A stretch of 27,466 nucleotides of DNA, from positions 1 through 27,466 of the IMG/VR virus record IMGVR_UViG_3300025146_000409; one strand, given 5' to 3'. Source of the stretch: a virus. The position numbers and the translations under genes are program-made. How positions within the stretch are numbered: the stretch's first letter is position 1; each line of letters begins with the position of its first letter. A model generated the notes under the pieces. It made no database searches. It was not told the DNA's origin and saw nothing but the letters and a program-made list of their open reading frames with translations. Below are positions 1 through 25,302 of this stretch, one piece after another.

Positions 1-2
1 CC

Positions 3-179
3 ATACCCGCAGCTCTATTCAATAGCAGCGCCGATCTCGAGGTTGGGTCTTATAATATTGCGACTAATCCGATGGATGGCCGCGCCAGTCATTGCTTTTT
101 GTGCGCCGATGATCTCGAAGACTATTTTATCAAGGCCCTGTTCTGGCATTCCTGTCCCCTGGTGGGGGTTAAACCATAG
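3..179 (+). CDS. 3' end of a phage structural-type protein (5' truncated)
   Basis: An open frame enters from the left edge and stops with TAG at 177-179, giving 58 residues. Ordinary coding-like composition and a stop 16 bases before the next Shine-Dalgarno-led gene make this the natural end of an upstream gene. The tail contains NIATNPMDGRASHCFLCADD and ends SCPLVGVKP. I do not recognise the family. Its position, upstream of a small membrane protein and on the strand of the structural genes, suggests a late gene, but that is inference. A different frame is also open here but lacks its own start signal. Confidence 0.5.
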   Translation: MPAALFNSSADLEVGSYNIATNPMDGRASHCFLCADDLEDYFIKALFWHSCPLVGVKP

Positions 180-195
180 CAAAAGGATAACGTCA

Positions 196-537
196 ATGAC
201 CAACACACCCCAAAAAATAGATAAAGATATCTTACAGGAAAAGATATCGCGTTTGTTGGAGACTAATGGTACAATGCCGGAAACGCAACGCAATCAATTG
301 ACCACCTATCTGATCCTGGACATGCGTGAAGATATTAAAAAGGTGATGGAGTTAATACAACGTGTGGAGAAGCTGGAGGCCACAAGTATTGTCGCCTGGA
401 TCAAAAAACACCCCAAAATGACGTCCTCGATATGCTGGGCTTTCTTTATCAGCGCCACGTTCTGGTTTATTTTTGTGCATGACATCTTGCCCTGGCTTGT
501 CAACAACCTCAAGATATTATCGGAATTGAGGCTTTGA
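196..537 (+). CDS. Small single-span membrane protein with N-terminal coiled coil
   Basis: 113 residues. The ATG at 196 follows AAAAGGA at 8 bases; the frame is open further upstream but without a start signal, so 196 is chosen. Residues 1-65 are polar and helical (KISRLLETNGTMPETQRNQL, then DIKKVMELIQRVEKLEA), followed by a basic stretch WIKKHPKMTS and one hydrophobic segment at about 80-100 (ICWAFFISATFWFIFVHDIL). This layout, a soluble coiled coil and then one transmembrane helix, is like XhlA-type lysis accessory proteins and small phage membrane proteins. That link rests on layout only. It is the last gene before the terminator at 579-609. Confidence 0.7.
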   Translation: MTNTPQKIDKDILQEKISRLLETNGTMPETQRNQLTTYLILDMREDIKKVMELIQRVEKLEATSIVAWIKKHPKMTSSICWAFFISATFWFIFVHDILPWLVNNLKILSELRL

Positions 538-578
538 TAACCCCCGCAAGGGGCGTATTCGGAATTACTACCATAATT

Positions 579-615
579 AAGATATCCTCGAAATTATCGA
601 GGATATCTTATTTCA
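579..615. terminator. Hairpin terminator after the left-end + operon
   Basis: A perfect 12-bp inverted repeat (AAGATATCCTCG 579-590, complement 598-609) has a 7-base loop and is followed by TATTTC. A smaller hairpin with four C, a GCAA tetraloop and four G lies at 542-553, immediately after the stop codon at 537. Together they should end + strand transcription before the pentamer array; the T-run is weak. Confidence 0.6.
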
Positions 616-1345
616 ATCTGTGCCGAACCTCAAACTGCCGTGCCGTGCCGAACCTCAAACTGCCGTGCCGAGCCGCACCGTGACATACCGGGCCGAACCT
701 CGCCCTGTTTTATAAATAAGGCATAATTCATCCATGCCTCGCCCATCCTCGCCACGCTCCACCAGACCAGGCCTTACTCCGCCGAACCGTACTCGACCCC
801 ACCATGACATACCCCGCCCTATTTTACAAAATAGGCATAATTCATCCATGCCATACCGCACCAGACCCTACCGGACATAGGCATGCCCCACCGGGCCGAG
901 CCTAGCCCCACCATACCGTACCAAACCCCACCCTATTTTATAAACAAGGCATAATTCATCCTTGCCCCGCCTTGCCAAAACAAACCCCACTCCACCTAGC
1001 CTTTCCGCACCTCACCCTGCCCTGCCTAACCATATCCTATTTACAAATCAGGCATAAATTCATCCATGCCTTACCTCGCCGGACCTCGCCTAGCCTCACC
1101 GCAGCAGACCTTAACAAACACCACCGCGTCAGACCTCACATCGCCCGACCCTATTTACAAATCAGGCATAATTCATCCATGCCTTACCATACACGGCACC
1201 ACCAGAACACACCCTACAATACCCCACCGCACCGAACCGCATCGTACCCGACCGAACCCTGCCTTACCAGACATTGCCTCGCCACATTGTACCAAGCCCG
1301 ACCCCGGCTAACCTGACCGGACACGACCCAATCTCGCCCTGTCGT
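615..1345. repeat. Degenerate pentanucleotide (CCNNN) array with five embedded hairpin repeats
   Basis: About 730 bp with no credible gene. The + strand is a near-continuous run of 5-base units starting with CC (for example CCTAG CCTTT CCGCA CCTCA), so the - strand reads as GG tracts separated by 3 bases. Five copies of a 35-36 bp AT-rich repeat interrupt it at 703-738, 817-852, 931-966, 1036-1070 and 1149-1183. Each contains GGCATAATTCATCCATGCC or a close variant, an inverted repeat able to form a 5-6 bp stem with a 9-base loop. From the CCATG inside one copy to the start of the next there are exactly 17, 17, 15 and 17 pentamers, a 114-bp (once 104-bp) higher-order period. It lies between convergent transcription units. 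Function unknown. Confidence 0.85.
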
Positions 1346-11461: not shown

Positions 11462-11490
11462 AGTATAGCACAGCTATAGTACAATGTCAA
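11462..11490 (-). promoter_or_regulatory. Early leftward promoter PL2 with operator-like repeats
   Basis: On the - strand: TTGACA (11490-11485), 17-base spacer, TATACT (11467-11462). Spacer carries TGTACTATAGC followed directly by TGTGCTATACT, an 11-bp direct repeat, and GTACAAT follows downstream near 11458. Same pattern as the promoter at 9976-10004. Start expected near 11455. Confidence 0.85.
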
Positions 11491-11512: not shown

Positions 11513-11541
11513 TTGACAAGTGATGAAAAATAATATAAGAT
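11513..11541 (+). promoter_or_regulatory. Rightward promoter of the replication operon (PR-like)
   Basis: TTGACA (11513-11518), 17 bases, TAAGAT (11536-11541); an overlapping TATAAG at 15-base spacing is an alternative. It diverges from PL2, with 22 bp between the two -35 boxes, so a regulator bound here could set the direction of transcription. It lacks the extended -10 TG found at the other leader promoters. Confidence 0.75.
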
Positions 11542-11547
11542 AATGGT

Positions 11548-11710
11548 AGTTACATCATAAATCGCTGGCAGAACAAAATACCAGCAAGGGCCGTGGCAAG
11601 CCCAATCAGACAGAATAATAAGCCGCTTCTTTTGGGCTTGTGGTCTTAACCTATCTGTCTAGGTAATCGCCACAGGCCGCAGGTCCAAAAGAAGCGGTTT
11701 GTTTTATCTG
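11548..11710 (+). ncRNA. ABCABC-pseudoknot leader RNA, copy 2 (before HicA operon)
   Basis: Intergenic 11542-11729 holds no gene. Helices: A CAAGCCC (11597-11603) with A' (11634-11640), 7 bp; B AGACAGA (11608-11614) with B' (11654-11660), 7 bp; C AAGCCGCTTCTTTT (11620-11633) with C' (11687-11700), 14 bp with one G-U. C' is followed by GTTTTATCTG, so C/C' resembles an intrinsic terminator. Extra elements: a hairpin GCTGG/CCAGC at 11564-11585, B' placed in the loop of a 5-bp hairpin (11649-11664), and 11636-11643 able to pair instead with 11670-11677. That last pairing excludes A/A', so this copy could switch between two folds. Confidence 0.65.
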
Positions 11711-11729
11711 AGAAACAATAAGGAGCGCC

Positions 11730-11900
11730 ATGACTAAAAGCCTAAAGATTGTCTTCAACGACCCCATCACAACCGAGCTCGAAAATGAATTGGTGGATGT
11801 AATACTGGCCTGGGTCGAGGCCCACGATCTGACCGTCGCTATTATTCCGAGCGAAGAATCCGAAAGCGAGGAGGCCGGCGATGTCCAAGAAAACCAGTAG
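11730..11900 (+). CDS. Short acidic protein upstream of HicA-like gene
   Basis: 56 residues; AAGGAG before the ATG. MTKSLKIVFNDPITTELENE, LVDVILAWVEAHDLTVAIIP, then an acidic tail SEESESEEAGDVQENQ. Overlaps the HicA-like gene by 20 bases. A small acidic protein translated just ahead of a basic toxin-like protein would fit an antitoxin, but it does not resemble HicB. It may equally be an unrelated early protein. Confidence 0.65.
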   Translation: MTKSLKIVFNDPITTELENELVDVILAWVEAHDLTVAIIPSEESESEEAGDVQENQ

Positions 11901-12117
11901 TTATTACATCGGCGTTGCCCGCAAGAGCGGCTTCAGCATCCGCGAGGGCGGCAGCCACACCAAGATTTATGCCCCCGGCTCAGGGCGTCCGATGGTGATA
12001 CCCCGGCACCGCGATCTGTCACCGGGTGTGGAACACGCTATTGTAAAATGGCTTTTGAAGATGGGCGTGATATTGGGGATAATGCTGGCGATGTGCCGCA
12101 TTACGGGTGCGTTATGA
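11881..12117 (+). CDS. hicA: HicA-family protein (mRNA interferase-like)
   Basis: 78 residues. The sequence YYIGVARKSGFSIREGGSHT and KIYAPGSGRPMVIPRHRDLS follows the HicA layout: an N-terminal helix ending in a Gly-hydrophobic pair, the conserved G-S-H with the catalytic His (His26), a beta hairpin, P-x-H/R, then a C-terminal helix. HicA proteins have a dsRBD-like fold and cut mRNA when free of their antitoxin HicB. No HicB-like gene is next to it; flanking genes are a 56-residue acidic protein and a 55-residue unknown. The last 20 residues (ILGIMLAMCRITGAL) are unusually hydrophobic for the family. Confidence 0.75.
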   Translation: MSKKTSSYYIGVARKSGFSIREGGSHTKIYAPGSGRPMVIPRHRDLSPGVEHAIVKWLLKMGVILGIMLAMCRITGAL

Positions 12118-12281
12118 CAAAACACGATGTTTACGAGGCCTTGAGAAATGCCGGTATCAGGCTTGGGTCTAAGTCCTGGATTGATTACGAAAAGTGCAAG
12201 CAGTTATTGTTAAGCGATGGCGTGACACCGGAGCAGTACCAGGTCATTCTCCACGCCATTGTAGAGTATGTGGGGGTTTAA
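12114..12281 (+). CDS. Small unknown protein after HicA
   Basis: 55 residues. ATG overlaps the HicA stop (ATGA), indicating coupled translation; an upstream in-frame ATG at 12048 lies in the HicA coding region and is less likely. MTKHDVYEALRNAGIRLGSK, then SWIDYEKCKQLLLSDGVTPE and QYQVILHAIVEYVGV: a compact helical protein. It has a vague helix-turn-helix look but no clear family. Confidence 0.6.
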   Translation: MTKHDVYEALRNAGIRLGSKSWIDYEKCKQLLLSDGVTPEQYQVILHAIVEYVGV

Positions 12282-12282
12282 G

Positions 12283-12387
12283 GTGGACGGCATATTTTCT
12301 AAATTAAGATTGATTGTTCTGGCCTGGCAAATCAAGCGATTACAGCGGGAGCGAAATCGATTGAGAAAGGCATTATTCTATGATTGA
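12283..12387 (+). CDS. Very short basic peptide (34 aa, GTG start)
   Basis: GTG at 12283 follows GGGGG at about 7 bases and lies just after the previous stop. The peptide (VDGIFSKLRLIVLAWQIKRL and QRERNRLRKALFYD) is an amphipathic, basic helix and overlaps the primase start by 8 bases. Tight packing and helix-like pattern support a real gene; its size makes this uncertain. Confidence 0.4.
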   Translation: MDGIFSKLRLIVLAWQIKRLQRERNRLRKALFYD

Positions 12388-13420
12388 CACCGAAGCCCTG
12401 CGCAAAAATATCGACCTCCGCCAGACCATCGAGAAGATAAGCGGAGCAGCGGGGGGTAATACAAAGCGGCTTTACTGCCCCATATGTCAGGTTGGCAAGC
12501 GCACGATCCCCGCCCTCTCGATTAGAGACGATTATTATTTTTGTTTTGGGTGCGGGGCCAAGGGTGACGCAATTGACCTGATTCAGGCTTTGCATCACCT
12601 TTCATTTATTGAAGCCTGCAAATACCTGGGTTGGGACGGACGCCCCGGCGATGATGCCGATATCGAGAAAATAAAGGCGGAGCGCATTATCGGCCAAGAA
12701 CTGGCCGAGGGGCAACGCCTGGCCCAACTCGATATAATGCTGTCCGAGTTTACAGCGGACGAGATCTGGATGGCGTATCAGCGCCGCCTCGACGAAGATT
12801 CGAGGCAGTGGTGGCGTAACCAGGGCGTGCCCGATGACTGGCAAAATTACCTCAGATTGGGATACACCAACGATAAAGCCTATTACGATAAAGGCGGGAA
12901 CTTATGCCATAGCCCCGCTTTTACGATTCCATACTTCCATGCGGGCTGGCAGTTTCAGAACATGCAGTACCGCCTCGTCGATCCCGCCAATCCTAAAGAC
13001 CGTTACCGATTCCAGCCCGGACTCAGAACCACGTATTACATGACCGAGCCCAGCCAATCCATGCAGGACTGCGCCGTTATTTGCGAGGGCGCTAAGAAGG
13101 CGATGGTTGCTAATATCATGGGCGATACCGGCGACAAAGTTTCGGTGTTGGGAGTGCCATCCAAAACCGACAGCGGGGGCGTGGCCGAGGCTGTAAAAGA
13201 CTGCCGGCATGTCTGGATTGCGTTGGACCCCGATGCCTGGGATAGGCCCGCCAACGCAAGCTCGGATTGGCTGCCTGCCCCAGTTAAGTTGGCGCAACAG
13301 ATCGGGAAGGCGGCGCGGGTGGTGCGGTTGCCTGCCAAGTCAGACGATATGTTTTTGCAGTACGGCATGAGCTGCGACGAATGGAAATCGGCATTGAAGG
13401 CGGCGGGGCGGGCGGGATGA
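12380..13420 (+). CDS. DnaG-type DNA primase (zinc finger + Toprim)
   Basis: 346 residues; GAGAAAGG precedes the ATG. N-terminal CHC2-like zinc-binding domain with Cys33-x2-Cys36 and Cys55-x2-Cys58 (YCPICQVGK, YFCFGCGAKGDAIDLIQ). The C-terminal Toprim domain has CAVICEGAKKAM (catalytic Glu236) and VWIALDPDAW (Asp283, Asp285), the metal-binding E and D-x-D set. It would make RNA primers or, as in many phage versions, act as a primase-like replication protein with the helicase at 14379. Shorter than bacterial DnaG (about 580 residues): the helicase-binding C-terminal domain is absent. Ends 30 bases before the next promoter. Confidence 0.88.
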   Translation: MIDTEALRKNIDLRQTIEKISGAAGGNTKRLYCPICQVGKRTIPALSIRDDYYFCFGCGAKGDAIDLIQALHHLSFIEACKYLGWDGRPGDDADIEKIKAERIIGQELAEGQRLAQLDIMLSEFTADEIWMAYQRRLDEDSRQWWRNQGVPDDWQNYLRLGYTNDKAYYDKGGNLCHSPAFTIPYFHAGWQFQNMQYRLVDPANPKDRYRFQPGLRTTYYMTEPSQSMQDCAVICEGAKKAMVANIMGDTGDKVSVLGVPSKTDSGGVAEAVKDCRHVWIALDPDAWDRPANASSDWLPAPVKLAQQIGKAARVVRLPAKSDDMFLQYGMSCDEWKSALKAAGRAG

Positions 13421-13577: not shown

Positions 13578-14378
13578 ATGAGCGTAAAAATTATGACCCT
13601 GGTTTTTGAAGCCTCTATACCTGATCTAAAGTATACAAAAAAAGATAAAAAAAGGATAGCAAAAGCATCTACAATAAAACTTTTGCTTTTGGCCTATGCA
13701 GATCACGCCAACGACGAGGGGGAGGCTGCCTATCCAGGCTATACTCGCCTCGAACTAAAAACAGCATTAAGCCGGCAAGGAATATCCGATACACTAGAAG
13801 CCATTCGCCAACATGGTTTTATGGTTCATAAAGGGAAAAGCAAGCGCCATACCGGGATATATGAATTCAATATCAAAATGCTAGAAGCTCTAGTCAAGCC
13901 CCTTGACCGGTCAAGCCACTTGACTAGTACTAGTCAAGCCACTTTACCAGTACCGGTCAAGCCACTTGACTTAAATCATCCTTTAACCATCCTTGAATCA
14001 TCCTCTTATGGCGAAAAAGAACTCGCCATTGAAAAGCCTTCTGAGAAGGCAAACGGCAAACGAGATGTTAAGGCTGATCTTCTCCCCTCTACGGAGGGAG
14101 GAAAGTTAATTATGCTTAAGCTCACACAAGAGCAGAACGCGAAGGGGCGGGGGGCGGTCAAATACTTCGAGTCGCTGGCGCAAAAGCAAACCCTGGAGGC
14201 GGCTGAGGCCAGGCTAGGGCAGGCTGAATTCGAGAAGGCGCTGCAAAAGGCTTTAGAGACTGGGATCACGCAGAGGGCGCGTATAGTCAATTACATCGTG
14301 AAGTGGAACCCCAACCGAACCTGGACGCAGCCCACGCTTGACAACGGGCAGCCGTGTCTAATCAGAGCGAGGGACTAA
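13578..14378 (+). CDS. Replication initiator-like protein (winged HTH) with internal origin
   Basis: 266 residues; AGGAG before ATG. N-terminal winged-helix domain typical of phage O/DnaD-like replication proteins: IKLLLLAYADHANDEGEAAY, then PGYTRLELKTALSRQGISDT and LEAIRQHGFMVHKGKSKRHT. The middle (about 105-160) is a linker encoded by the iterons (VKPLDRSSHLTSTSQATLPV). The C-terminal domain (KGRGAVKYFESLAQKQTLEA, then FEKALQKALETGITQRARIV) probably contacts the helicase. The gene lies between primase and helicase, and the DNA repeats inside it mirror lambda O, whose gene contains ori. The initiator role is inferred from domain, location and origin repeats. Confidence 0.75.
   Translation: MSVKIMTLVFEASIPDLKYTKKDKKRIAKASTIKLLLLAYADHANDEGEAAYPGYTRLELKTALSRQGISDTLEAIRQHGFMVHKGKSKRHTGIYEFNIKMLEALVKPLDRSSHLTSTSQATLPVPVKPLDLNHPLTILESSSYGEKELAIEKPSEKANGKRDVKADLLPSTEGGKLIMLKLTQEQNAKGRGAVKYFESLAQKQTLEAAEARLGQAEFEKALQKALETGITQRARIVNYIVKWNPNRTWTQPTLDNGQPCLIRARD
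13891..14003. other. Probable phage replication origin: iterons plus AT-rich repeats
   Basis: Four 17-bp iterons begin at 13891, 13908, 13931 and 13954, with consensus YRGTCAAGCCACTTGAC. Each is palindromic (GTCAAG, 3 bases, CTTGAC); copy 1 has CCC in the centre and copy 3 has TTTAC at its end. They are followed at 13971-14003 by three tandem 11-mers, TTAAATCATCC, TTTAACCATCC and TTGAATCATCC, which look like a DNA-unwinding element. Iterons plus an unwinding element inside the initiator gene is the lambda-type layout. Confidence 0.75.
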
Positions 14379-16628
14379 ATGGATACGATGAAAAATGTTT
14401 TTGACCCCGGCATGGTCAGCCAGGCCACGGTTCAGCTTTTACAGGATCGCAAGCTCAGGCTGGGCGAGAGCATCAAGACCGGGATCGCCGACCTGGACGA
14501 AGTCCTAAACCCGTTGCGCCCAGGTGAGCTTATTGTGGTGTTAGGCTATACCCGCAACTACAAGAGCGGACTCATGAATTTTATCAGTCGCTATCACGCG
14601 ATGCGTCTGCGCGATGCGGGGGCCATGAATCAGGCCGTGATTACCTTCACCTGGGAGCAGTCTATCGAGGAGCAGGGGATCATCGATATTGCCCAGCTCA
14701 CCAGCCTTGACTCCAACAGGATGATGCGGGGTCAGCTCAGCGAGGACGAATGGAATCTTTTACTTTTAGGCGCGATGCGGCGTGGTACTCTGCCGTGGTG
14801 GCTGGTGGGGCATAGCGCCTGCATCAACGAGAGACGGCCTCGCCTGAATATGTCGGAGGTCGCGGAAGTGCTGGCCTGGATCGTGGATTACCAGGAGATC
14901 GAGCCTGTGCTGGTGGTGCTTGACTATTTGCAGCGCATCAAGCGTGAGCGTGGTGATACCTTGCGCGAGCAGTTCATAGCGATTGTCGATCAGGCTAAAG
15001 ACCTGGCGTTAGCGTTTCACTGCCCCGTTATTTTGGGCAGCCAGGCGGGGCGAACGGTGGTCAATACGCCGTCGCGGACGTGGCGGCTTCCGCACGTGGA
15101 TGAAGGGCAGGAATGTTTAGCCGGAGATGTTGTTTTGGTTAATGCCAAAACGGGAGATACTAAATCTGTCCGAGAATGGCACGAAAAAGGGAGCGATCTT
15201 TACTTACATACTATGCAGGAAAATTGGCATTTTTGTGTTCAGAAATCTTGGCCTATAAGATTAGCGGCAATTCAAGATATTTATAAGATTTTGACAAAGG
15301 ATAATAAGTTTATTCGTGTATCCGGGAATCATCCTTTTTATACGCCTCAGGGATGGAAAAAAGCTGATCGGCTAAAATCTGGGGATTATGTAGCTTATGC
15401 TCGTTGTTTAGATGTGATTGATGCGAAACAATTAAATAAGAGCCGAGCTCTAATTCTGGGTTTATTACTTGGCGATGGATCGTATACTAATGGTTCTACC
15501 CCAACTTTATCGTGTGGGCATAGAAAGGAAATTGGTGATATTGCAGCACGGATTGTTCGTGAAGAATTCAATTTATCTACTACATATAATGTGGCTAAGG
15601 ATGGGAACATAGAAGTTTATTTTACCGGACCGCAGAATGTTGGACCTGGGAAAAATACTTTAATCGATTGGTTACGAAAAATTGGGCTATATGGGCAGCG
15701 ACATAATAATGCTGAAATACCCCAATTAGTATTTCAGTCGTCTAATGAATCTATAGCGTCTTTTTTGTGTGGTTTGTACACTGCTGACGGTTGTTATTCT
15801 CGGCCCTCCAAAAAAATAACTTCACCGGTTATTTCGTTTTGTTCGGCCAGTATTTTGATGGCTCGACAAGTAGTTGATTTATTATTAAGATTGGGTATTC
15901 ATTCAAGTAGTAGAATTCAACTTCCTGGAAAAAGAACAGTTCTACCAATGAATATAATTAATATAACGGGAATGGAAAATGTGGGGAGATTCATGAATAT
16001 CGTAGGATTTTTAGGTACAAAGCAAAAAAAAGCAAGAGAACGGTTTGATATTGCTGTTTCATTGAGAAGCAAATCCAAAATAAAACTTCGATCTTCTGAG
16101 ACACTCCCTCCAGAAATTTCATTAGAATTTATTGAGATGGTAAAAAAATATCACATGAGAGCTCGGTACGCGATGGTAAAGGGGAGAGGCATAAGTTACT
16201 CTAAGGCTATTTGCGCTGCTCAAGAAATGGGGGAAAATCATTGGCCGGAAAGATTGAATGGAGATATTGTTTGGGTTAGGGTAGAAGAAGTGATATTAGA
16301 TGGACGCGAACAAACATATGATATTTCTATTCCGCCTGAACATAATTTTATTGCTAATGGGTTTGTTGTGCATAACACATCAAATCTTGAGCAAAGCGCA
16401 GATAAATTGATCTCGGTATGGATGCCTAAAAACGACAACCCAACCGGAACTGTGCTTGAATACGCCAATAAGACTTACCGCGTGACCGACAATTTGTTGA
16501 TCCTGGGTGTGATGAAACAAAAATTCGGCCCGTCCCCGCGTGTCATGGAATTGACTGTTTATCCCGAGACCAACGATATCACTTGTGTCAAAACGATTGA
16601 ATTGAATCATTACGCCAGCGATCGCTAG
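14379..16628 (+). CDS. DnaB-like replicative helicase interrupted by an intein
   Basis: 749 residues as translated: 245 N-extein, 421 intein, 83 C-extein, so 328 after splicing. The RecA-fold ATPase has Walker A at 56-63 (GYTRNYKS), a catalytic-type Glu in FTWEQ (93) and Walker B VLVVLDYLQRI (Asp182), followed by VILGSQAGR. After the intein comes TSNLEQSADKLISVWMPK, the DnaB H4-type motif (S-G-x-I-E-Q-D-A-D). There is no DnaB N-terminal domain. The Walker A has Tyr where the Gly before Lys is usual. It follows the initiator immediately and should unwind DNA at the origin within it. Confidence 0.85.
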   Translation: MDTMKNVFDPGMVSQATVQLLQDRKLRLGESIKTGIADLDEVLNPLRPGELIVVLGYTRNYKSGLMNFISRYHAMRLRDAGAMNQAVITFTWEQSIEEQGIIDIAQLTSLDSNRMMRGQLSEDEWNLLLLGAMRRGTLPWWLVGHSACINERRPRLNMSEVAEVLAWIVDYQEIEPVLVVLDYLQRIKRERGDTLREQFIAIVDQAKDLALAFHCPVILGSQAGRTVVNTPSRTWRLPHVDEGQECLAGDVVLVNAKTGDTKSVREWHEKGSDLYLHTMQENWHFCVQKSWPIRLAAIQDIYKILTKDNKFIRVSGNHPFYTPQGWKKADRLKSGDYVAYARCLDVIDAKQLNKSRALILGLLLGDGSYTNGSTPTLSCGHRKEIGDIAARIVREEFNLSTTYNVAKDGNIEVYFTGPQNVGPGKNTLIDWLRKIGLYGQRHNNAEIPQLVFQSSNESIASFLCGLYTADGCYSRPSKKITSPVISFCSASILMARQVVDLLLRLGIHSSSRIQLPGKRTVLPMNIINITGMENVGRFMNIVGFLGTKQKKARERFDIAVSLRSKSKIKLRSSETLPPEISLEFIEMVKKYHMRARYAMVKGRGISYSKAICAAQEMGENHWPERLNGDIVWVRVEEVILDGREQTYDISIPPEHNFIANGFVVHNTSNLEQSADKLISVWMPKNDNPTGTVLEYANKTYRVTDNLLILGVMKQKFGPSPRVMELTVYPETNDITCVKTIELNHYASDR
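15114..16376 (+). mobile_element. Intein with LAGLIDADG homing endonuclease domain
   Basis: 421 residues, helicase positions 246-666. Starts with Cys (CLAGDVVLVNAKTGD; block A), has block B as RVSGNHPFYTP, two LAGLIDADG helices (LILGLLLGDGSY and ASFLCGLYTADGCY) and ends with FIANGFVVHN followed by Thr. The terminal His-Asn and downstream Thr nucleophile are all intact, so splicing is expected. The DNA is much more AT-rich than the flanking helicase sequence, a sign of separate origin. The site is directly before the conserved H4 motif of the helicase, a typical choice of a highly conserved active-site target. Confidence 0.92.
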
Positions 16629-16640
16629 AAAGGATAGCTA

Positions 16641-16895
16641 ATGCTCGAGCCTCACCACATCCAGATGCGCCTCATCGATCACGGCGGCTTCAGCTTTCAG
16701 CAGGTTGCGCTTTATGACGCCACAGACGGCGATTACTGGCGTGACGGCCTGGGCTGCGTCAGGACGTGGATGACCGGCGTCACCGCCGCCGCTTATTTGC
16801 GGCACTCAAAAGAAACTTACGGCAGGCCGTTTGTTTTGAACACATTGGCCGGGAATGTGATATATATTCGCTGTGAGAGGGAAGTCGAACAGTAG
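16641..16895 (+). CDS. Small unknown protein after helicase
   Basis: 84 residues; GAAAGGA before the ATG, 12 bases after the helicase stop. MLEPHHIQMRLIDHGGFSFQ, then VALYDATDGDYWRDGLGCVR and TWMTGVTAAAYLRHSKETYG. Rich in aromatic residues and His, no known domain. It is followed closely by the DUF5131 gene. Confidence 0.6.
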   Translation: MLEPHHIQMRLIDHGGFSFQQVALYDATDGDYWRDGLGCVRTWMTGVTAAAYLRHSKETYGRPFVLNTLAGNVIYIRCEREVEQ

Positions 16896-16905
16896 AAAGG
16901 TATAA

Positions 16906-17682
16906 ATGCAAATGGGCGATAAAACTGGAATATCTTGGACCGATCATACGTGGAATCCATTTATTGGTTGTACTCGCGTTAGCGCCGGTTGCCGTATTTG
17001 TTATTTTTACAGAGATGCCGAGCGTTATGGGTTCGATCCCAGAGTGGTGCATTTAAGCAAAACTATGCGCCAACCTTTGAAGTGGAAGGAACCGGCGCCG
17101 GTATTCACTTGCTCCTGGAGCGATTTTTTCCATAACGATATCAAGCCGGAATGGCGAGAGGCGGCGTGGCAAATTATACGCCAGACCCCGCACTTGACTT
17201 ACCAGATCTTGACCAAGCGGCCTGAAAATATCCGGGCCTGCCTCCCCAAGGATTGGGGCCAGGGATGGCCGAATGTGTGGTTGGGTGTTACGGTCGAGAC
17301 TGCCAAATATATATGGCGGCTCGATGAGGTGTCCAAGATTCCCGCGGTGTTGCGTTTTGCCAGTTATGAGCCTGCCCTAGGCCCAACGATCAATGTGCCT
17401 ACGGAATGGGCCAGTACGATTCGGTGGTGGATCGCTGGCGGTGAGAGTGGGGCTGGATTCGTTCAGCCCAAGGCGCTATGGTTTCAATGGATGCGAGATG
17501 AATGTGCGGCCAATAAGATTCCCTTCTTCTTCAAACAGTGGGGCGGCACGCGCAAGATTGACGGTGTGTGGGGCGGCGATAAATTGGACGGTATTCAATA
17601 CCATGAATTTCCATTCCTGAAAAACTTTGTTCCCGATCCCTTATTTGTGGAGGAAATCAATGCCAGAACACAACCTGTCTGA
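16906..17682 (+). CDS. DUF5131 (phage Gp37/Gp68) family protein
   Basis: 258 residues; AGAAAGG upstream of the ATG. Begins MGDKTGISWTDHTWNPFIGC, then TRVSAGCRICYF: the DUF5131 signature I-x-W-T-D-x-T-W-N-P-x-x-G-C with three Cys (22, 29, 32). Further family motifs: FTCSWSDFFH, YQILTKRPENI, PNVWLGVTVE, LRFASYEPALGP, WWIAGGESG, and PFFFKQWGG at the end. The fold and Cys set recall radical-SAM-type [4Fe-4S] proteins, but no reaction is established for the family. Common in phage early regions. Full length, no truncation seen. Confidence 0.85.
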   Translation: MQMGDKTGISWTDHTWNPFIGCTRVSAGCRICYFYRDAERYGFDPRVVHLSKTMRQPLKWKEPAPVFTCSWSDFFHNDIKPEWREAAWQIIRQTPHLTYQILTKRPENIRACLPKDWGQGWPNVWLGVTVETAKYIWRLDEVSKIPAVLRFASYEPALGPTINVPTEWASTIRWWIAGGESGAGFVQPKALWFQWMRDECAANKIPFFFKQWGGTRKIDGVWGGDKLDGIQYHEFPFLKNFVPDPLFVEEINARTQPV

Positions 17683-17964
17683 TTCGCCTATTTGCAAATA
17701 CTGCGGCCTCCCGATTGTTCCCCCCAAATCCCAGCGCTTTTACCTGAAGGGGAAAGCGGAGTTCGCCCATTCCATGTCAATACTTGCTTCGTGCTGCTTA
17801 ATCAAGCGATAGCGTATAAGGACGCCGAGATCGGGCAGTTACGGCAACAACTACAGGCCAGCAATGACAGTTTGAGATTGTTTGTGGATCAGAACGATAA
17901 AATAATCTCACTTGAAAAAGAGATTGATTATTTACGCGAGCATCCAACGGTAGAGTTTACGTAG
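17660..17964 (+). pseudogene. Zinc-binding small protein with a frameshift
   Basis: ATG at 17660 after GGAGG. The first frame (MPEHNLSDSPICKYCGLPIV, then PPKSQRFYLKGKAEFAH) runs to a stop at 17812; the second frame supplies FHVNTCFVLLNQAIAYKDAE and a coiled coil (IGQLRQQLQASNDSLRLFVD, then LEKEIDYLREHP) to 17964. Joined near 17770-17780 they give one protein of about 100 residues with a C-x2-C ... H-x3-C zinc site and a helical tail. One extra T in the TT run at 17775-17776 would restore it. The break could be real, a homopolymer sequencing deletion or a frameshift event. Overlaps the DUF5131 gene by 23 bases. Confidence 0.6.
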
Positions 17965-17976
17965 TCAGGAATTGCT

Positions 17977-18720
17977 ATGAATGAATTAGTTTTATCATTA
18001 TTTCCAGGTATAGGCTTGCTGGATATGGCTTTTGAGGAGCAGGAATTCTGTGTTGTACGTGGGCCTGATAAGTTGTGGGGAGGCAATATCAAAAACTTTC
18101 ATCCACCGGTCGCCAAATTTGACGGGATTATAGGTGGCCCACCCTGTCAGTGTTTCTCACAATTGCGATATGTAAATCTGGCGGCCGGTGTTGAGCTTGC
18201 CGAAAACTTGATACCGGAGTTTGAGCGGGTAGTATTAGAGGCGTTTCCGAAATGGTTCCTTATGGAAAATGTAGCCAATGCCCCGGAGCCAGGCCTTGAG
18301 CCATATTATCACGTGCGTTCTATTTTACTCAATGCGCGCTGGTTTGGAGCTGAGCAGGAGCGCAAGCGCAGATTTTCATTTGGGACACAAGTTGCATTTC
18401 ATTCTGCCATTGATCTGAGTCGGTATCTTGATGTAAATGTATTTGAGGATATGAATTGGTCGCCTGCGGTTTGCGCCAGTGGCGGTATAAAGCCCGGAGT
18501 TACAGGCGACAGAAAAACACGCCTTAAATATATGGGATGGAAAACGGCGACGGCACTAAAAGAGAGTATTCGTTTACAAGGGCTGCCTGAGGATTTTTTG
18601 AGGGATGCGCCCTTTACTTTGGAGGGCAAGCATAAAGTTGTGGGAAACGGAGTGCCTCTCCCGTTGGGGCGCGCCATAGCCCAAGCGGTAGCAAAAGTAG
18701 TTAGATTGGAGGCTTTATGA
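17977..18720 (+). CDS. DNA (cytosine-5) methyltransferase
   Basis: 247 residues. Class I m5C methyltransferase motifs: I LSLFPGIGLLDMAFE (SAM binding), IV GGPPCQCFS with catalytic Cys57, VI FLMENV (97-99), VIII QERKRRFSF, and X VVGNGVPLPLGRAIAQAVA. Short compared with typical 300-400 residue enzymes: the target-recognition segment between VIII and X is small. No restriction endonuclease partner is adjacent, so it is an orphan enzyme that most likely protects phage DNA from host restriction. The next gene starts in an ATGA overlap. Confidence 0.9.
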   Translation: MNELVLSLFPGIGLLDMAFEEQEFCVVRGPDKLWGGNIKNFHPPVAKFDGIIGGPPCQCFSQLRYVNLAAGVELAENLIPEFERVVLEAFPKWFLMENVANAPEPGLEPYYHVRSILLNARWFGAEQERKRRFSFGTQVAFHSAIDLSRYLDVNVFEDMNWSPAVCASGGIKPGVTGDRKTRLKYMGWKTATALKESIRLQGLPEDFLRDAPFTLEGKHKVVGNGVPLPLGRAIAQAVAKVVRLEAL

Positions 18721-19325
18721 AAGTCTACGACCCCGACACCATTCGCAAATCGTGCCTGCGCAACGCCGCGCTTCAACGCCCAACCGAGTTCAGCCAGAAG
18801 GCGAAAGGCGCGGTGCGCGTGGTCTACAACGCCGAATTGTCAAAACTACCGGGTATGCTTGATGTAGACGAAGCCCGAACCCTGGTGTGGGGCTACGTCC
18901 TGTGTCCTGAAGACGAGCCGTTTCACCCCCTGCACAGTCGCGACTTGACGCCCCAGCAGTTCAACGCCCTGGGCTTGTGGGCTACGGAGAGGGGCGGAAA
19001 CGGATACCAGATGCGGGAACAATTCCCGCAAGAGCTGGCGTGGGCATTGACGAAGGCGCGTATGGTCATGGCTGGGCAGCAGGTTGCGGCGGGGCAGTTG
19101 ACCTTTGGCGATTTATTGGGACGGTATCAAACCACTACCGGCCCCATCGACATCAACGGTGAGAGTGATCGCCAGCCCGATAAATTATCGGATGTCGTGG
19201 CGGAGGCGCTCAAACAGGGCGGGGCCGTAACGGCGGTATATGACGGGCAGGTAGCGCCGGCACAGACATTGGCGGGGGCCTTAATTGGCCCGGAACCGGA
19301 GGAGGCCTATGACCTGGGATTCTAA
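18717..19325 (+). CDS. Unknown phage protein coupled to the methyltransferase
   Basis: 202 residues; starts inside the methyltransferase stop. MKVYDPDTIRKSCLRNAALQ, then a central part (LVWGYVLCPEDEPFHPLHSR, LTPQQFNALGLWATERGG, QFPQELAWALTKARMVMAGQ) and an acidic Gly/Ala/Pro-rich end. No known domain was seen. Reads as a soluble helical protein. Confidence 0.6.
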   Translation: MKVYDPDTIRKSCLRNAALQRPTEFSQKAKGAVRVVYNAELSKLPGMLDVDEARTLVWGYVLCPEDEPFHPLHSRDLTPQQFNALGLWATERGGNGYQMREQFPQELAWALTKARMVMAGQQVAAGQLTFGDLLGRYQTTTGPIDINGESDRQPDKLSDVVAEALKQGGAVTAVYDGQVAPAQTLAGALIGPEPEEAYDLGF

Positions 19326-19530
19326 GGCTACTGTAATTGTCAATAATAGCCGCGGATCTTACACCGAGGACGCCGCCCCCGCCCTGGATCCGCCCCAGGG
19401 ATGGCGCAGAATCGACCGCGCTAACCTGAACCCACGATACGAGTATGAGCCGTTTGTGTGGATAGACCAGAATGGAGACCCGCTTTATGATCCAAATTGC
19501 CAAGACCGACGCGAACCATACCAGCATTAA
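19309..19530 (+). CDS. Small unknown protein
   Basis: 73 residues. ATG at 19309 lies behind GGAGG, with a 17-base overlap of the preceding gene; an upstream ATG (19285) has no such signal. MTWDSKATVIVNNSRGSYTE, DAAPALDPPQGWRRIDRANL, then EYEPFVWIDQNGDPLYD. Charged, low complexity, no domain recognised. Overlaps the nuclease gene by 44 bases. Confidence 0.55.
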   Translation: MTWDSKATVIVNNSRGSYTEDAAPALDPPQGWRRIDRANLNPRYEYEPFVWIDQNGDPLYDPNCQDRREPYQH

Positions 19531-19786
19531 GCAGCATCTTATCCGCAATGGATACCGGACGTATTCACTCCATAAAGCCGGCGATGGCATCCCCGATTTA
19601 TTGGTGCTGGAACCAACCGCGTTAATCTGGGTGTTGCTGGAAGTCAAGATGCCCGGCGAGGGTCTGCGCGGCAAGCAGATCGAGTTTTTCGCAGAGACGG
19701 CGGGCGCGCCCAGGCATGTGGTGTCAAGCCAGGATGAAGCCATAAAAATTATGGCGCAATATAAACCGCGAAAGGGCAGATGTTAA
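19487..19786 (+). CDS. VRR-NUC-like / PD-(D/E)XK nuclease
   Basis: 99 residues from the ATG at 19487, which is spaced 8 bases from GGAG. Core motif: GYRTYSLHKAGDGIPDLLVL, then IWVLLEVKMPGEGLRGKQIE. This gives Asp37, Glu52-x-Lys54 and a downstream Gln64, the VRR-NUC arrangement G-x-P-D-(hydrophobic)4 ... E-x-K ... Q. VRR-NUC proteins are structure-selective endonucleases or Holliday-junction resolvase-like enzymes. Small stand-alone versions are common in phage replication regions. It could resolve branched replication or recombination DNA before packaging. Confidence 0.82.
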   Translation: MIQIAKTDANHTSIKQHLIRNGYRTYSLHKAGDGIPDLLVLEPTALIWVLLEVKMPGEGLRGKQIEFFAETAGAPRHVVSSQDEAIKIMAQYKPRKGRC

Positions 19787-20520
19787 TGGGCGCTAAAGCT
19801 TTCTTACTCACCGTTATCGATTCCGACATTCAAGATCGCTTGATATTCCTGGGCCGTGTTGCGTCAGATGCCTATATGGAGGTGGGCACAATCGCCCTGC
19901 GCATCTGCAACAGGCTGGATGAAATCAAGCGTGACAGCATCACAGGTAAACTCTACTTGCCCCCCGGCCAGGCCGATACCCTGAAAGAAACCGGGTATAT
20001 GGATGTGTATCGCGTGGTCGGCGAGCTGTTCGGCAAGTCAGGGCGTCGTGTTCGTGAGTACGCCCAGGCAGTGCAATTCTATCCCGCCCAGGCATGGACT
20101 GAGTTCGAAGTCCTGCCCTTCTCCCACTTCGAGTTTGCGCTTACGTTTGGGGAGAAGTGGCGCACGGTTCTCGAGGCCTCGCTTTTGCATATGGACAGGA
20201 ACGGGGGCAGGCCGCCGAGCGTGGATTGGTTGCAAGCGAATTTTTCTGGAGCGTGCCAAGTCGGTGTTGATGTAAACCGCATAGATGCACAGAATGAGCT
20301 TGAAGACGCGAGAATTTACGATAATGATGTCCTATCCCCTGATTTCCCCACGGCAGTTGAGATAGATCCGAAGGAGCGGTATGCGCTGAGGCTAATCGCT
20401 AAAATGGCAGCCGCGCTTGAAAAACTTATGAATACGGCGTCGCTGCCGCCGCGGGTATGTAGGGCCATTTCGGAATTGGCGGACGCGCTGCGGGAATGCT
20501 TGACAGTCGATCCAAGGTAA
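19786..20520 (+). CDS. Unknown phage protein, possible DNA-binding regulator
   Basis: 244 residues. ATG at 19786 overlaps the previous stop (TAATG) and lies 9 bases after AAAGGG; an ATG at 19780 is only 3 bases from it. FGKSGRRVREYAQAVQFYPA, then WTEFEVLPFSHFEFALTFGE look like the helical core of a ParB/RepB-type HTH protein, which I hold weakly. C-terminal half is helical (YALRLIAKMAAALEKLMNTA). The last 20 bases carry the -35 box of the next promoter. Role unknown. Confidence 0.6.
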   Translation: MGAKAFLLTVIDSDIQDRLIFLGRVASDAYMEVGTIALRICNRLDEIKRDSITGKLYLPPGQADTLKETGYMDVYRVVGELFGKSGRRVREYAQAVQFYPAQAWTEFEVLPFSHFEFALTFGEKWRTVLEASLLHMDRNGGRPPSVDWLQANFSGACQVGVDVNRIDAQNELEDARIYDNDVLSPDFPTAVEIDPKERYALRLIAKMAAALEKLMNTASLPPRVCRAISELADALRECLTVDPR

Positions 20521-20528
20521 TGTACAAT
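20500..20528 (+). promoter_or_regulatory. Strong promoter before the packaging genes
   Basis: TTGACA (20500-20505), 17-base spacer ending in TG, TACAAT (20523-20528): near-consensus sigma70 plus extended -10. The start near 20535 is followed by the GC-rich hairpin at 20558-20587, so the product could be a short RNA of about 60 bases or an attenuated packaging operon. Confidence 0.8.
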
Positions 20529-20557
20529 TTACGCAATCCTAGCCCCCTCCACGGGCG

Positions 20558-20596
20558 CGCCCTCGCCGTTCAATCGCGGCGGGGGCGTTGTATTTG
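20558..20596 (+). terminator. GC-rich intrinsic terminator (or cos-like site)
   Basis: 11-bp stem CGCCCTCGCCG (20558-20568) / CGGCGGGGGCG (20577-20587) with one T-G pair, loop of 8 bases, then TTGTATTT. Good terminator form. Just upstream, GGGCGCGCCC (20553-20562) is a palindrome overlapping the stem. A GC-rich inverted repeat right before the terminase small subunit region is also where cos sites are often found, so it may be a packaging site instead. Confidence 0.6.
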
Positions 20597-20605
20597 CGGT
20601 TATTG

Positions 20606-20614
20606 TGATATAAT
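20606..20614 (+). promoter_or_regulatory. Extended -10 promoter for packaging genes
   Basis: TGATATAAT, identical to those at 2376 and 25187. Transcript would start near 20621, only about 15 bases before the ATG at 20636, with GAGAGG as ribosome site. Confidence 0.7.
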
Positions 20615-20635
20615 TTCATATAGAGAGGCGTCAAT

Positions 20636-20929
20636 ATGAGCCAGAAGGCCAAAGCGGAGAAAGGGAAAGCCATTGCCCAAATCCAATTCTATGCCAGCTT
20701 GCCACCAATTCAGTCCGCGCTCAAAATCAGCGGCGACGGCGACAATTTAAGGGTACAGCTCGATATCCCGATCCGAATTAGCCCCGATGGCCTGAAACTG
20801 GCTTTGTTCACACAGAAGCGGCTTTTAGTGACGGTGATCGAATTACCGGAAAACGATGAGCGACCCATCCCACGAAAACGCATTACCAAATATCCAACCT
20901 ACGCCAAAGCCTCTGAGACCAAAGCATAG
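20636..20929 (+). CDS. Small unknown protein before terminase
   Basis: 97 residues. MSQKAKAEKGKAIAQIQFYA, then SLPPIQSALKISGDGDNLRV and QLDIPIRISPDGLKLALFTQ, ending basic (RPIPRKRITKYPTYAKASET). Predicted mixed alpha/beta with a strand-rich centre. It overlaps the terminase small subunit by 74 bases, so it may work in packaging, but nothing recognised. Confidence 0.6.
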   Translation: MSQKAKAEKGKAIAQIQFYASLPPIQSALKISGDGDNLRVQLDIPIRISPDGLKLALFTQKRLLVTVIELPENDERPIPRKRITKYPTYAKASETKA

Positions 20930-21530
20930 AGTCTTTGTCGAGGAATATCTGCGGTTATGGAACGCCACGGATGCTTATCGTTTGGCGTATCCGAAGTGTT
21001 CACAGGAAAGTGCGCGCCGTAAAGGCTCGTTGTTGTTGACAAATGTTGACATCAAAGATGAAATTTCGCGTCGCTTGACTGAGCGGGCGATGGGGGCCGA
21101 CGAAGTACTTGACCGATTGGGGAGATGGGCGCGGGGTAGTCACCAACCTTTCATAAAGATAAGCGATAATGGTTTTATCTATTTTGATTTTTCTAACCCT
21201 GAAGCATTGAAGCATATTGACCTCATCAAGAAAATAAAGACGAAACGCACGCGCCGGCTCGAGGGCAGGGGCGAGAACGCGGAAGAATGGGAGGATGAAT
21301 GGGTAGAGGTCGAGTTATATGACGCCAAAGATGCAGCGGCTTTAATTGGCAAGCATCATAAATTATTCAATGAGCGCGTGGAGCATACTGGGGCTGGCGG
21401 CGGGCCTATCCCAATAGCGGTGACCAATGACAGACTTGATCGAGCAATATTTACTCTTGCTGATGCCCTCCGAGAAGCGGTACCTGGCGCGGATTCAGGA
21501 AAGGATAGTACTTTGGGTTCCCCAAAGTAA
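20856..21530 (+). CDS. terS: Terminase small subunit
   Basis: 224 residues. The N-terminal DNA-binding part follows the small-terminase pattern: RPKHRVFVEEYLRLWNATDA, then YRLAYPKCSQESARRKGSLL and LTNVDIKDEISRRLTERAM, i.e. an HTH 'F...Y....N.T.A...A.....S....G..LL....V...I' layout. The middle includes ADEVLDRLGRWARGS. Recognises the packaging site and loads the large subunit. Overlaps the large subunit by 104 bases; the start at 20856 has only a weak GGAAAA site. Confidence 0.85.
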   Translation: MSDPSHENALPNIQPTPKPLRPKHRVFVEEYLRLWNATDAYRLAYPKCSQESARRKGSLLLTNVDIKDEISRRLTERAMGADEVLDRLGRWARGSHQPFIKISDNGFIYFDFSNPEALKHIDLIKKIKTKRTRRLEGRGENAEEWEDEWVEVELYDAKDAAALIGKHHKLFNERVEHTGAGGGPIPIAVTNDRLDRAIFTLADALREAVPGADSGKDSTLGSPK

Positions 21531-22902
21531 GCCACAATGGCTGGCATTTTTATCGAGAGCCGATGAAGTATTTTATGGCGGAAGCGCTGGCGGGGGTAAA
21601 ACTGACCTCGGAATCGGGCTTGCGATTGAATGCCATAAACATTCTGCTATCTTCCGCCGCGTCTATCCCAACTTGTCCGGGATCATGCAGCGGGCGCGTG
21701 AGATTATTGGAGAGACGGCGCATGAAAATAAAGCCGACAAGATATGGACTTGGAGTGACGCTCGTACACTCGAATTCGGGGCGGTGCAGTACGAGGATGA
21801 TAAAAAGAACTGGCAGGGTCGCCCCCATGACTTTTTATTCTTCGATGAAATCACCGAATTTACCGAGACTCAGTATGTGTTCATATGCGGATGGAATCGC
21901 ACTACCGACGCTAATCAGCGTGTGCGCGTCATTGTTGGCGGTAACCCCCCGTTTGACGAATCGGGTTCTTGGGTGGTCAGGCATTGGGAGGCATGGCTTG
22001 CCCCCAAACATCCAAGACCCGCCAAGCCCGGTGAATTGCGCTGGTACGCCACGGTGCAGGGCAAAGAGCGGGAGTTTCCCAATGGTAGCCCGGTTGAGAT
22101 CGAGGCCGAGATCATATATCCACGCTCACGCACATTTATACCGGCCAGGCTTAACGATAACCCATTTCTTACCCATGACTCCAGGTATCGCTCTGTTATT
22201 CAGTCCATGCCTGAGCCGTTGCGGTCAATGCTTCTTTACGGCGATTTCACGGCCACAACCAAGCCCGATCCGTTTCAGGTTATCCCCACAGAGTGGGTCA
22301 GGCTTGCGCAAAAGCGAGGGATGGAGCGCAATAGGCCGGCTATACCCTGTACTGGCGCGGGGCTTGATGCAGCCAGGGGCGGTGATGACTACATGGCGCT
22401 AGCGCGGCGTTACGATGATTGGTTTGCCGAGGTCAAGAAATGGCCCGGTGTTCAGGTCCCCGATGGTCCCACGGCTGCAACGCTGGTACATTCGGAATTA
22501 GGCAATGAAAAGCCCGGTTATATCAATGTGGACGTGATTGGGATTGGGTCATCTACTTTTGATCACATTGTGCCTCTGTACGATAAAGTAAATCCAGTCA
22601 ACGTATCTGAGAAATCAGAATACCACGATAAATCGGGTAAGCTCAAGATGACCAATATCCGCGCCGAGATTCATTGGCGGATGCGGGAGGCCTTAGACCC
22701 ATCTCAGGGCAGCACGATGGCATTACCGAATGACCCCGAAGTGTTGGCGGATTTATGCGCGCCGCGCTACCGCATAACCTCAGCCGGGGTTATAATTGAG
22801 AAGAAAGAAGAAATCAAGGCGCGCATAGGCCGTAGCCCCGATGTAGGCGAAGCCATTATGCTTTGCAACTACATTAGCGATGGTGGCGGCTGGACGTGGT
22901 GA
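21427..22902 (+). CDS. terL: Terminase large subunit (ATPase-nuclease)
   Basis: 491 residues. ATPase: Walker A GGSAGGGKT (51-59), adenine-region VPQSKPQWLAFL (31-42), Walker B DFLFFDE with catalytic Asp140-Glu141, coupling motif VGGNPP. C-terminal RNase H-like nuclease: GAGLDAARGGDDYMAL (Asp314, Asp320/321), VDVIGIGSSTFDHI, and RSPDVGEAIMLC near the end (Asp). All motifs of a complete packaging motor are present. It cuts concatemers and pumps DNA into the prohead through the portal encoded at 23491. Confidence 0.93.
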   Translation: MTDLIEQYLLLLMPSEKRYLARIQERIVLWVPQSKPQWLAFLSRADEVFYGGSAGGGKTDLGIGLAIECHKHSAIFRRVYPNLSGIMQRAREIIGETAHENKADKIWTWSDARTLEFGAVQYEDDKKNWQGRPHDFLFFDEITEFTETQYVFICGWNRTTDANQRVRVIVGGNPPFDESGSWVVRHWEAWLAPKHPRPAKPGELRWYATVQGKEREFPNGSPVEIEAEIIYPRSRTFIPARLNDNPFLTHDSRYRSVIQSMPEPLRSMLLYGDFTATTKPDPFQVIPTEWVRLAQKRGMERNRPAIPCTGAGLDAARGGDDYMALARRYDDWFAEVKKWPGVQVPDGPTAATLVHSELGNEKPGYINVDVIGIGSSTFDHIVPLYDKVNPVNVSEKSEYHDKSGKLKMTNIRAEIHWRMREALDPSQGSTMALPNDPEVLADLCAPRYRITSAGVIIEKKEEIKARIGRSPDVGEAIMLCNYISDGGGWTW

Positions 22903-22914
22903 AATGGAGGACAC

Positions 22915-23469
22915 ATGATTACTCGCAGAAGCTTCTTTAAAGTAATAGGTGCTGGATTGGTTGCGCTAGTCGCAGGCAAATTGGTGTTGCCAGAGAATGC
23001 CGAAGGAACAGACGCGTTCTTCCTGGATGACATTGATCCGGTTGTGGATGGTGTGTTGGATTGGTCTAAAGCTGTATCAGACGAAACCAATCCAGATATT
23101 ATCAAAGCTTTGCAGCAATTGGCAGATGATGCTCGTTTCCGGTATCAGCATATGGGGGAACAGACAACAAAGGGTGTTTTTAGTGGGCTGAAAGATAGTA
23201 TTAGCACCGGAGTCTATGATTCAATTGTGGTGGATTGGAAAGAAAACGTGCTGCCCGAAGGCGAATCGATGACCGAGATCGCAGTACCATTATCTCGTTG
23301 GCCCGCCGAAGACGAGAATATTTGGGAAAGCGCTGTTGGACCCGTTAATGTTTCTGATGATGGGGGTAAAACCTGGCGAGGCGTTAAAGTGGAAGATGTC
23401 AAACTCATGGAATATCTAAGTAAACTGAAATGCCCTTTTGAGTTATATTATACCGATCGAGTCGAATAG
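22915..23469 (+). CDS. Protein with a twin-arginine (Tat)-type signal, between terminase and portal
   Basis: 184 residues; strong GGAGG before the ATG. MITRRSFFKVIGAGLVALVA is an almost textbook Tat signal: T-R-R-x-F-F-K followed by a moderately hydrophobic, Gly/Ala-rich segment. The mature part (DPVVDGVLDWSKAVSDETNP, YDSIVVDWKENVLPEGESMT, DDGGKTWRGVKVEDVKLMEY) is acidic with no known domain. Tat substrates are exported folded, unexpected in the packaging cluster. Alternatives: a virion protein with an N-terminal helix that fortuitously matches, or an acquired host gene. No enzymatic motif is visible. Confidence 0.65.
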   Translation: MITRRSFFKVIGAGLVALVAGKLVLPENAEGTDAFFLDDIDPVVDGVLDWSKAVSDETNPDIIKALQQLADDARFRYQHMGEQTTKGVFSGLKDSISTGVYDSIVVDWKENVLPEGESMTEIAVPLSRWPAEDENIWESAVGPVNVSDDGGKTWRGVKVEDVKLMEYLSKLKCPFELYYTDRVE

Positions 23470-23490
23470 TTGCGGGAGCGGGAGTTAGCA

Positions 23491-25137: not shown

Positions 25138-25220
25138 ACGCAACCCAACCGCAACTGCTACAGATACCGCTTGCCCAAGGTGATTGTGATATAATGACCA
25201 CGCTGAGGGCATACCTATGA
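25134..25220 (+). pseudogene. Truncated methyltransferase-like N-terminus
   Basis: TTG start in a TTGA overlap with the portal stop, 28 codons to TGA at 25218. NATQPQLLQIPLAQGDCDIM, then TTLRAYL: the start matches the N-terminus of the methyltransferase at 25745 (QPQLLQIPL in both), and the second half (QGDCDIM.TL) resembles the opening of N6A/N4C methyltransferases such as the one at 27081 (LHCGDCLAWLPTLP). The extended -10 promoter and helix A of leader copy 4 lie inside it. It looks like the remains of a methyltransferase gene interrupted or overwritten by the HNH cassette. Confidence 0.45.
25187..25195 (+). promoter_or_regulatory. Extended -10 promoter for the HNH/AP2 cassette
   Basis: TGATATAAT, same as at 20606 and 2376. 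Start near 25202, at the first base of helix A. Confidence 0.7.
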
Positions 25221-25293
25221 TTGATAATAAATAGCCGCTCTCTACTGGTATCCCTCAGCAAGATATCAATCTGTAGAAGGCGGCTATTTATTT
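25202..25293 (+). ncRNA. ABCABC-pseudoknot leader RNA, copy 4 (before HNH/AP2 gene)
   Basis: A GCTGAGGG (25202-25209) pairs perfectly with A' (25252-25259; 8 bp). B GATTGATA (25219-25226) pairs with B' (25264-25271; 8 bp). C ATAAATAGCCGC (25227-25238) pairs with C' (25280-25291; 12 bp), extended by TCTAC/GTAGA (25241-25245 with 25273-25277) across a 2x2 internal loop. C' ends in TATTTATTTGAGG, which includes the ribosome site of the gene at 25303. The smallest and cleanest of the four copies. It has no single-base mismatch in A, B or the main C helix. Confidence 0.78.
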
Positions 25294-25302
25294 GAGGTCA
25301 AA

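What the first reader, a model, noticed from the sequence alone, without database searches (positions are those of the whole stretch)
11881..12117. HicA-like toxin gene without HicB, next to a small acidic protein and behind the pseudoknot leader
The catalytic GSH motif is present but no HicB-type antitoxin is encoded nearby. Candidates for control are the 56-residue acidic upstream protein, the 55-residue downstream protein, or the structured RNA leader itself. It could be a novel toxin-antitoxin arrangement or a phage RNase that attacks host mRNA.
Basis: partly seen in the sequence, partly recalled or inferred. Interest (0 to 1): 0.6.

Follow-up and report, generated by a model that had tools for sequence, protein, structure and literature searches.

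The report
Orphan phage HicA-like RNase gene
A virus of bacteria carries a lone copy of a known RNA-cutting toxin gene, HicA, in the same gene cluster as its DNA-copying genes and without its usual antitoxin beside it, an arrangement already known from other phages.

Summary
[quoted passage not shown] The active-site signature (R21, G23/G24, H26) is intact.

No HicB lies beside it. All 20 relatives fetched by the two HicA scans have HicB directly downstream. The 56-aa and 55-aa neighbours show no HicB similarity.

The genes form one tight, overlapping set: structured leader, ORF56, hicA, ORF55, ORF34, primase, RepO, DnaB. The leader therefore belongs to the replication operon, not to hicA specifically.

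The window is part of a phage of about 64 kb, completed by IMGVR_UViG_3300025314_000854. It is not operonic with hicA.

Orphan HicAs in phage DNA-metabolism regions have precedents. LeBron gp82 was non-toxic in a published screen; DuncansLeg, Cheetobro and Eponine also lack detectable HicB.

Most likely this is an orphan HicA RNase used during infection, a new member of a known kind. ORF56 as an unrelated antitoxin remains possible but untested.

The parts
11462..11490 (-). Promoter-like site of the leftward operon (TTGACA-17-TATACT, extended -10)
   Evidence: Consensus scan, 11 of 12 matches; inference only
11513..11541 (+). Promoter-like site of the rightward operon holding hicA (TTGACA-17-TAAGAT)
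   Evidence: Consensus scan, 10 of 12; only 7 such sites on both strands of the 27-kb window; inference only
11548..11729 (+). Structured 5' leader of the whole replication operon: helix 11597-11605/11632-11640 with crossing pair 11607-11613/11655-11660, exclusive with a long hairpin 11617-11703 followed by TTTGTTTT
   Evidence: z -6.95, inverted repeats, stepwise folding and shuffle test; no Rfam match
11730..11900 (+). ORF56: 56-aa acidic protein (charge -12), overlaps hicA by 20 nt
   Evidence: ORF, AGGAG at 11721, coding-like codon usage 0.37 bits/codon; no relatives; not HicB-like
11868..11874 (+). Shine-Dalgarno GAGGAGG of hicA, inside ORF56
   Evidence: Sequence
11881..12117 (+). hicA: 78-aa HicA-family protein; domain about residues 5-61, hydrophobic C-terminal tail about 62-78
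12114..12281 (+). ORF55: 55-aa protein of unknown function, ATGA overlap with the hicA stop
   Evidence: no relatives; not HicB-like
12283..12387 (+). ORF34: possible 34-aa basic protein (GTG start) overlapping the primase start; weak coding signal
12380..13420 (+). DNA primase (CHC2 zinc finger), next gene of the operon
   Evidence: Pfam 2.9e-8, PHROG_47 4.3e-13
13578..14378 (+). Replication initiation protein (O-like) containing three 23-bp iterons at 13906-13971
   Evidence: PHROG_1032 9.5e-13; tandem repeats
14379..16628 (+). DnaB-like helicase; middle section looks like an intein
   Evidence: PHROG_19 3.4e-19 on residues 29-229 of 749; intein inferred from the sequence

Best explanation
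hicA (11881-12117) encodes a HicA-type RNase that has been recruited without HicB into the early replication operon of a roughly 64-kb tailed phage. Shown: the family, the intact active-site signature, the operon packing, and the lack of adjacent HicB. Inferred: it is made early with primase, RepO and DnaB from a sigma-70-like promoter through translational coupling, and it cleaves or binds RNA (host or phage mRNA) through His26 during infection. Its dose and toxicity would be limited by coupled translation and its position in the operon, rather than by a dedicated antitoxin.
For: HicA profile matches. The five best Foldseek hits of the model are all HicA chains (4p78, 6hpb, 6g26), though at E 0.3-0.9. 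R21, G23 and H26 align with residues R26, G28 and H31 of Adephagia gp91: H31 and G28 are the predicted active-site residues, and R26 and H31 were hit by mutations in recovered lysogens of the antitoxin-less phage. Coding signal and ribosome site. Overlaps on both sides and a downstream primase. All 15 IMG/VR and 5 bacterial relatives keep HicB directly downstream, so its absence here is a real difference. Four actinophage genomes show the same orphan state near SSB, RNA ligase or DnaQ genes, with no HicB found by profile. LeBron gp82 is a published non-toxic orphan HicA.
Against: No activity data. Only one genome carries this region, so conservation under selection cannot be measured. The Pfam score is just below cut-off, and the C-terminal tail has an ambiguous coding signal, as in a drifting gene. 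A HicB-like domain does exist in the phage. ORF56 has the charge, order and overlap expected of an antitoxin.
Confidence: 0.55

Rival explanations
1. ORF56-hicA is a toxin-antitoxin pair whose antitoxin is an acidic protein unrelated to HicB, with class-2-like gene order (antitoxin first, overlapping). Its acidic C-terminal tail would cover the basic RNA-binding face of HicA.
For: ORF56 charge -12 against HicA +9, 20-nt overlap with the hicA ribosome site inside ORF56. Adephagia has the same order, with an acidic 65-aa antitoxin gp90 followed by HicA.
Against: No HicB similarity by hhalign, HMM or shuffle test. No second case of ORF56 beside a HicA. Small acidic proteins and overlapping genes are ordinary in phages.
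Confidence: 0.18
2. hicA is a decaying remnant of a hicAB pair whose HicB was lost, tolerated because its product is inactive.
For: Every close relative has HicB. Pfam score just below cut-off. Unusual 17-residue tail with ambiguous codon signal. The LeBron orphan was non-toxic.
Against: Active-site residues intact, strong ribosome site and coding signal over the domain, tight packing inside an essential operon.
Confidence: 0.17
3. The distant HicB-like protein (G010:33162-33419, opposite strand) is the trans-acting antitoxin of this HicA.
For: PHROG_9151 'HicB-like antitoxin' E 6e-8 to 1.3e-9 in the same phage, and no other HicA there.
Against: About 19 kb away on the other strand. The first 17 profile positions are missing from its frame, and the codon signal switches frames there. 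HicBs beside the close HicA relatives fit a profile that scores this one only E 0.22.
Confidence: 0.06
4. The structured leader is an RNA antitoxin in a type III-like arrangement (promoter, pseudoknot RNA, terminator-like hairpin, toxin).
For: Pseudoknot-capable leader with a terminator-like hairpin and T-rich tail upstream of hicA.
Against: No tandem repeats. ORF56 intervenes. The leader precedes the whole replication operon. HicA is not a ToxN, CptN or TenpN fold (own knowledge). No relatives of the leader.
Confidence: 0.03

Closest known systems
Mycobacteriophage LeBron gp82 and other cluster L HicAs (DuncansLeg gp85)
   Same: HicA-family protein without HicB by profile search of the complete genome, beside DNA-metabolism genes (SSB gp81; RNA ligase in DuncansLeg), overlapping the next gene. 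LeBron gp82 is published as an orphan.
   Different: Divergent HicA (27% identity to ours), actinobacterial host, no acidic overlapping gene upstream, no structured leader known.
Fionnbharthvirus HicA (Cheetobro gp59, Eponine gp61)
   Same: HicA overlapped by an upstream small gene that is not HicB, near a DnaQ-like gene; no HicB found in the complete genome.
   Different: Upstream protein is 69 aa, near-neutral and unrelated to ORF56.
Adephagia gp90/gp91 (class 2 hicBA)
   Same: Small acidic protein gene upstream of the HicA gene; same predicted catalytic His and Gly.
   Different: gp90 is a HicB; ORF56 is not detectably one. gp91 is strongly toxic and gp90 neutralises it (PMC11373665).
Canonical hicAB of Moraxella phages and relatives
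   Same: Closest HicA sequences found, 31-39% identity, REGG-HTK-Y and IPRH motifs.
   Different: HicB directly downstream in all of them.

Membership tests
HicA (PF07927 / PHROG_353) | Profile match | tested here: met
   PHROG_353 9.8e-8; Pfam E 1.3e-5 but 25.6 bits against cut-off 27; independent HMM 1.5e-11
HicA (PF07927 / PHROG_353) | Conserved catalytic His with preceding Gly | tested here: met
   H26 invariant; G23 aligned with a column at least 90% Gly
HicA (PF07927 / PHROG_353) | alpha-beta-beta-beta-alpha dsRBD-like fold | tested here: inconclusive
   Predicted from a single sequence with that order (pLDDT 74, pTM 0.35); five best PDB hits are HicA chains but E 0.3-0.9
HicA (PF07927 / PHROG_353) | RNase activity or toxicity | not testable with these tools
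   Needs expression
HicAB toxin-antitoxin module | Adjacent hicB gene | tested here: not met
   No PF15919 or PF05534 match in window; neighbours not HicB-like; only HicB-like domain is about 19 kb away
HicAB toxin-antitoxin module | Neutralisation by a partner | not testable with these tools
   Needs co-expression
Class 2 hicBA (Gerdes 2024) | Small HicB upstream, overlapping or closely linked | tested here: not met
   ORF56 has the position and charge, but no HicB similarity
Orphan phage HicA (LeBron gp82 type) | HicA with no HicB in the whole phage | tested here: inconclusive
   No adjacent HicB, but a frame-split HicB-like domain elsewhere
Type III toxin-antitoxin | Tandem-repeat RNA antitoxin upstream of toxin | tested here: not met
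   No tandem repeats in the leader

The most novel reading that the evidence does not exclude
ORF56 is a new, non-HicB protein antitoxin (or regulator) of a HicA RNase inside a phage replication operon, tying toxin expression to replication under control of a switch-like structured leader.
Probability: 0.12. Interest if true: 0.6.

Novelty: new member of a known kind. Interest (0 to 1): 0.3.

Why it matters
HicB-less HicAs in phages are known but unexplained. This is another instance in an unrelated phage, this time next to the primase, which fits the idea that phages reuse HicA as an infection-stage RNase rather than as an addiction toxin. If ORF56 neutralises it, it would be a HicA antitoxin outside the HicB family.

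Tried and rejected
ORF56 or ORF55 as divergent HicB: rejected by hhalign (probability 0.2% or less), by HMMs of HicB including actinophage class 2, and by shuffle tests, where the best cases (z 2.6 and 3.1, against one sequence) are unremarkable among 18 comparisons. Leader as type III RNA antitoxin: no repeats. Leader relatives by exact 17-mer: five matches with no similarity beyond 18 nt, so taken as chance. Sister phages through primase, helicase, RepO or ORF56: none except the second record of the same phage. Terminase relatives share little besides the terminase genes within the stretches fetched, and their records have no HicA. Rfam: nothing. Fold of ORF56: only one helix predicted, not useful. 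Tyrosine integrase in the phage: none found, so no support for a lysogeny role.

Full report
Observation. The ORF at 11881-12117 is real and is a HicA-family protein. It matches PHROG_353 (toxin) at E 9.8e-8 and Pfam HicA_toxin at E 1.3e-5, slightly under Pfam's own cut-off. An HMM built from 11 other HicAs, without this sequence, finds it at E 1.5e-11 among 1,866 stop-to-stop frames of the whole phage; the next frame scores E 1.3. A profile of alignment A4, which includes this sequence, reaches solved HicA structures (6hpb 1.8e-16, 1whz, 5yrz). The single-sequence model has the alpha-beta-beta-beta-alpha order with a long last helix. Its five best Foldseek hits are HicA chains, at weak E-values. 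G17, H26 and G35 are invariant over 12 HicAs. Codon usage and a GAGGAGG ribosome site support translation.

No adjacent HicB. Profiles of both HicB Pfam families find nothing in the window. ORF56 and ORF55 give hhalign probabilities of 0.2% and 0.1% against a HicB alignment, and further tests against actinophage HicBs agree. In contrast, all 15 IMG/VR relatives and all 5 bacterial relatives found have a recognisable HicB directly downstream.

The phage. The window is a complete IMG/VR record but only part of a phage. Record IMGVR_UViG_3300025314_000854 (50,294 bp) is 100% identical to window 14249-27466 and, at its other end, to window 1-897, so the two records together cover a genome of about 64 kb. 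In the part outside the window there is one HicB-like domain (G010:33240-33389, PHROG_9151, E 6e-8 and 1.3e-9). It lies about 19 kb beyond hicA on the opposite strand. The first 17 profile positions are not in its frame, and the codon signal moves from the upstream overlapping frame to this frame at that point, so it is either disrupted or expressed unusually. My HicB profile scores it only E 0.22, so it appears to belong to a different HicB subfamily from those beside the HicA relatives.

Context. hicA sits in a tightly packed rightward gene set: promoter-like site, a 182-nt structured leader, ORF56, hicA (20-nt overlap), ORF55 (ATGA overlap), ORF34, primase, an O-like initiator with three 23-bp iterons, and a DnaB-like helicase. 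The leader folds far better than shuffles (z -6.95). During stepwise folding an early helix gives way to a long hairpin followed by a T-rich run. This looks like a switch or attenuator for the whole replication operon, not for hicA in particular. That reading is inference from one sequence.

Precedents. Gerdes (PMC10865869) lists 14 HicA contexts, all with HicB, a viperin gene or a fused domain. LeBron gp82 is described as an orphan HicA that was not toxic when overexpressed, while the related Adephagia gp91 is strongly toxic (PMC13148394, PMC11373665). I checked complete genomes: LeBron, DuncansLeg, Cheetobro and Eponine each carry a HicA and no HicB that my profile or PHROG_9151 detects, while the controls Adephagia, Powerball, Peanam and a Moraxella phage give strong HicB hits (all controls except Peanam contributed to that profile, so they are partly circular). 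In all four orphan cases the gene lies by DNA-metabolism genes. The window's gene fits this pattern.

Conclusion. The best reading is an orphan HicA RNase used in the infection cycle, co-expressed with replication genes. Decay and an ORF56-type antitoxin are the main rivals. Nothing here measures activity, and the region is known from a single genome, so selection could not be tested.

Noticed in passing
window 11548-11729: Leader with two mutually exclusive folds (pseudoknot-capable early helix, then a long hairpin with T-rich tail), at a divergent promoter region; looks like an attenuator or switch of the replication operon; no relatives found.
   Followed up: partly
window 13906-13971: Three 23-bp iterons with an inner palindrome inside the O-like initiator gene; likely lambda-style replication origin.
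   Followed up: no
L059:12861-13419 (G010:32861-33419): A PHROG_29525 gene overlapping a HicB-like domain; codon signal switches frame between them, so the HicB-like gene is disrupted or expressed unusually.
   Followed up: partly
window 1-1300: Imperfect short repeats (25-bp unit at 620-679 and diverged copies to about 1190); the other assembly of this phage breaks within this area.
   Followed up: no
window 14379-16628: DnaB-like helicase gene of 749 codons with an intein-like middle section.
   Followed up: no
L059:2471-3247: ORF of near-identical repeats (NTAITALPEGLSVGG) in the same phage, unusual for a phage gene.
   Followed up: no
L095:2280-2707 and L101:438-865: Cheetobro and Eponine: an orphan HicA overlapped by an upstream 69-aa protein that is not HicB, beside DnaQ-like genes; a second possible non-HicB partner.
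   Followed up: partly
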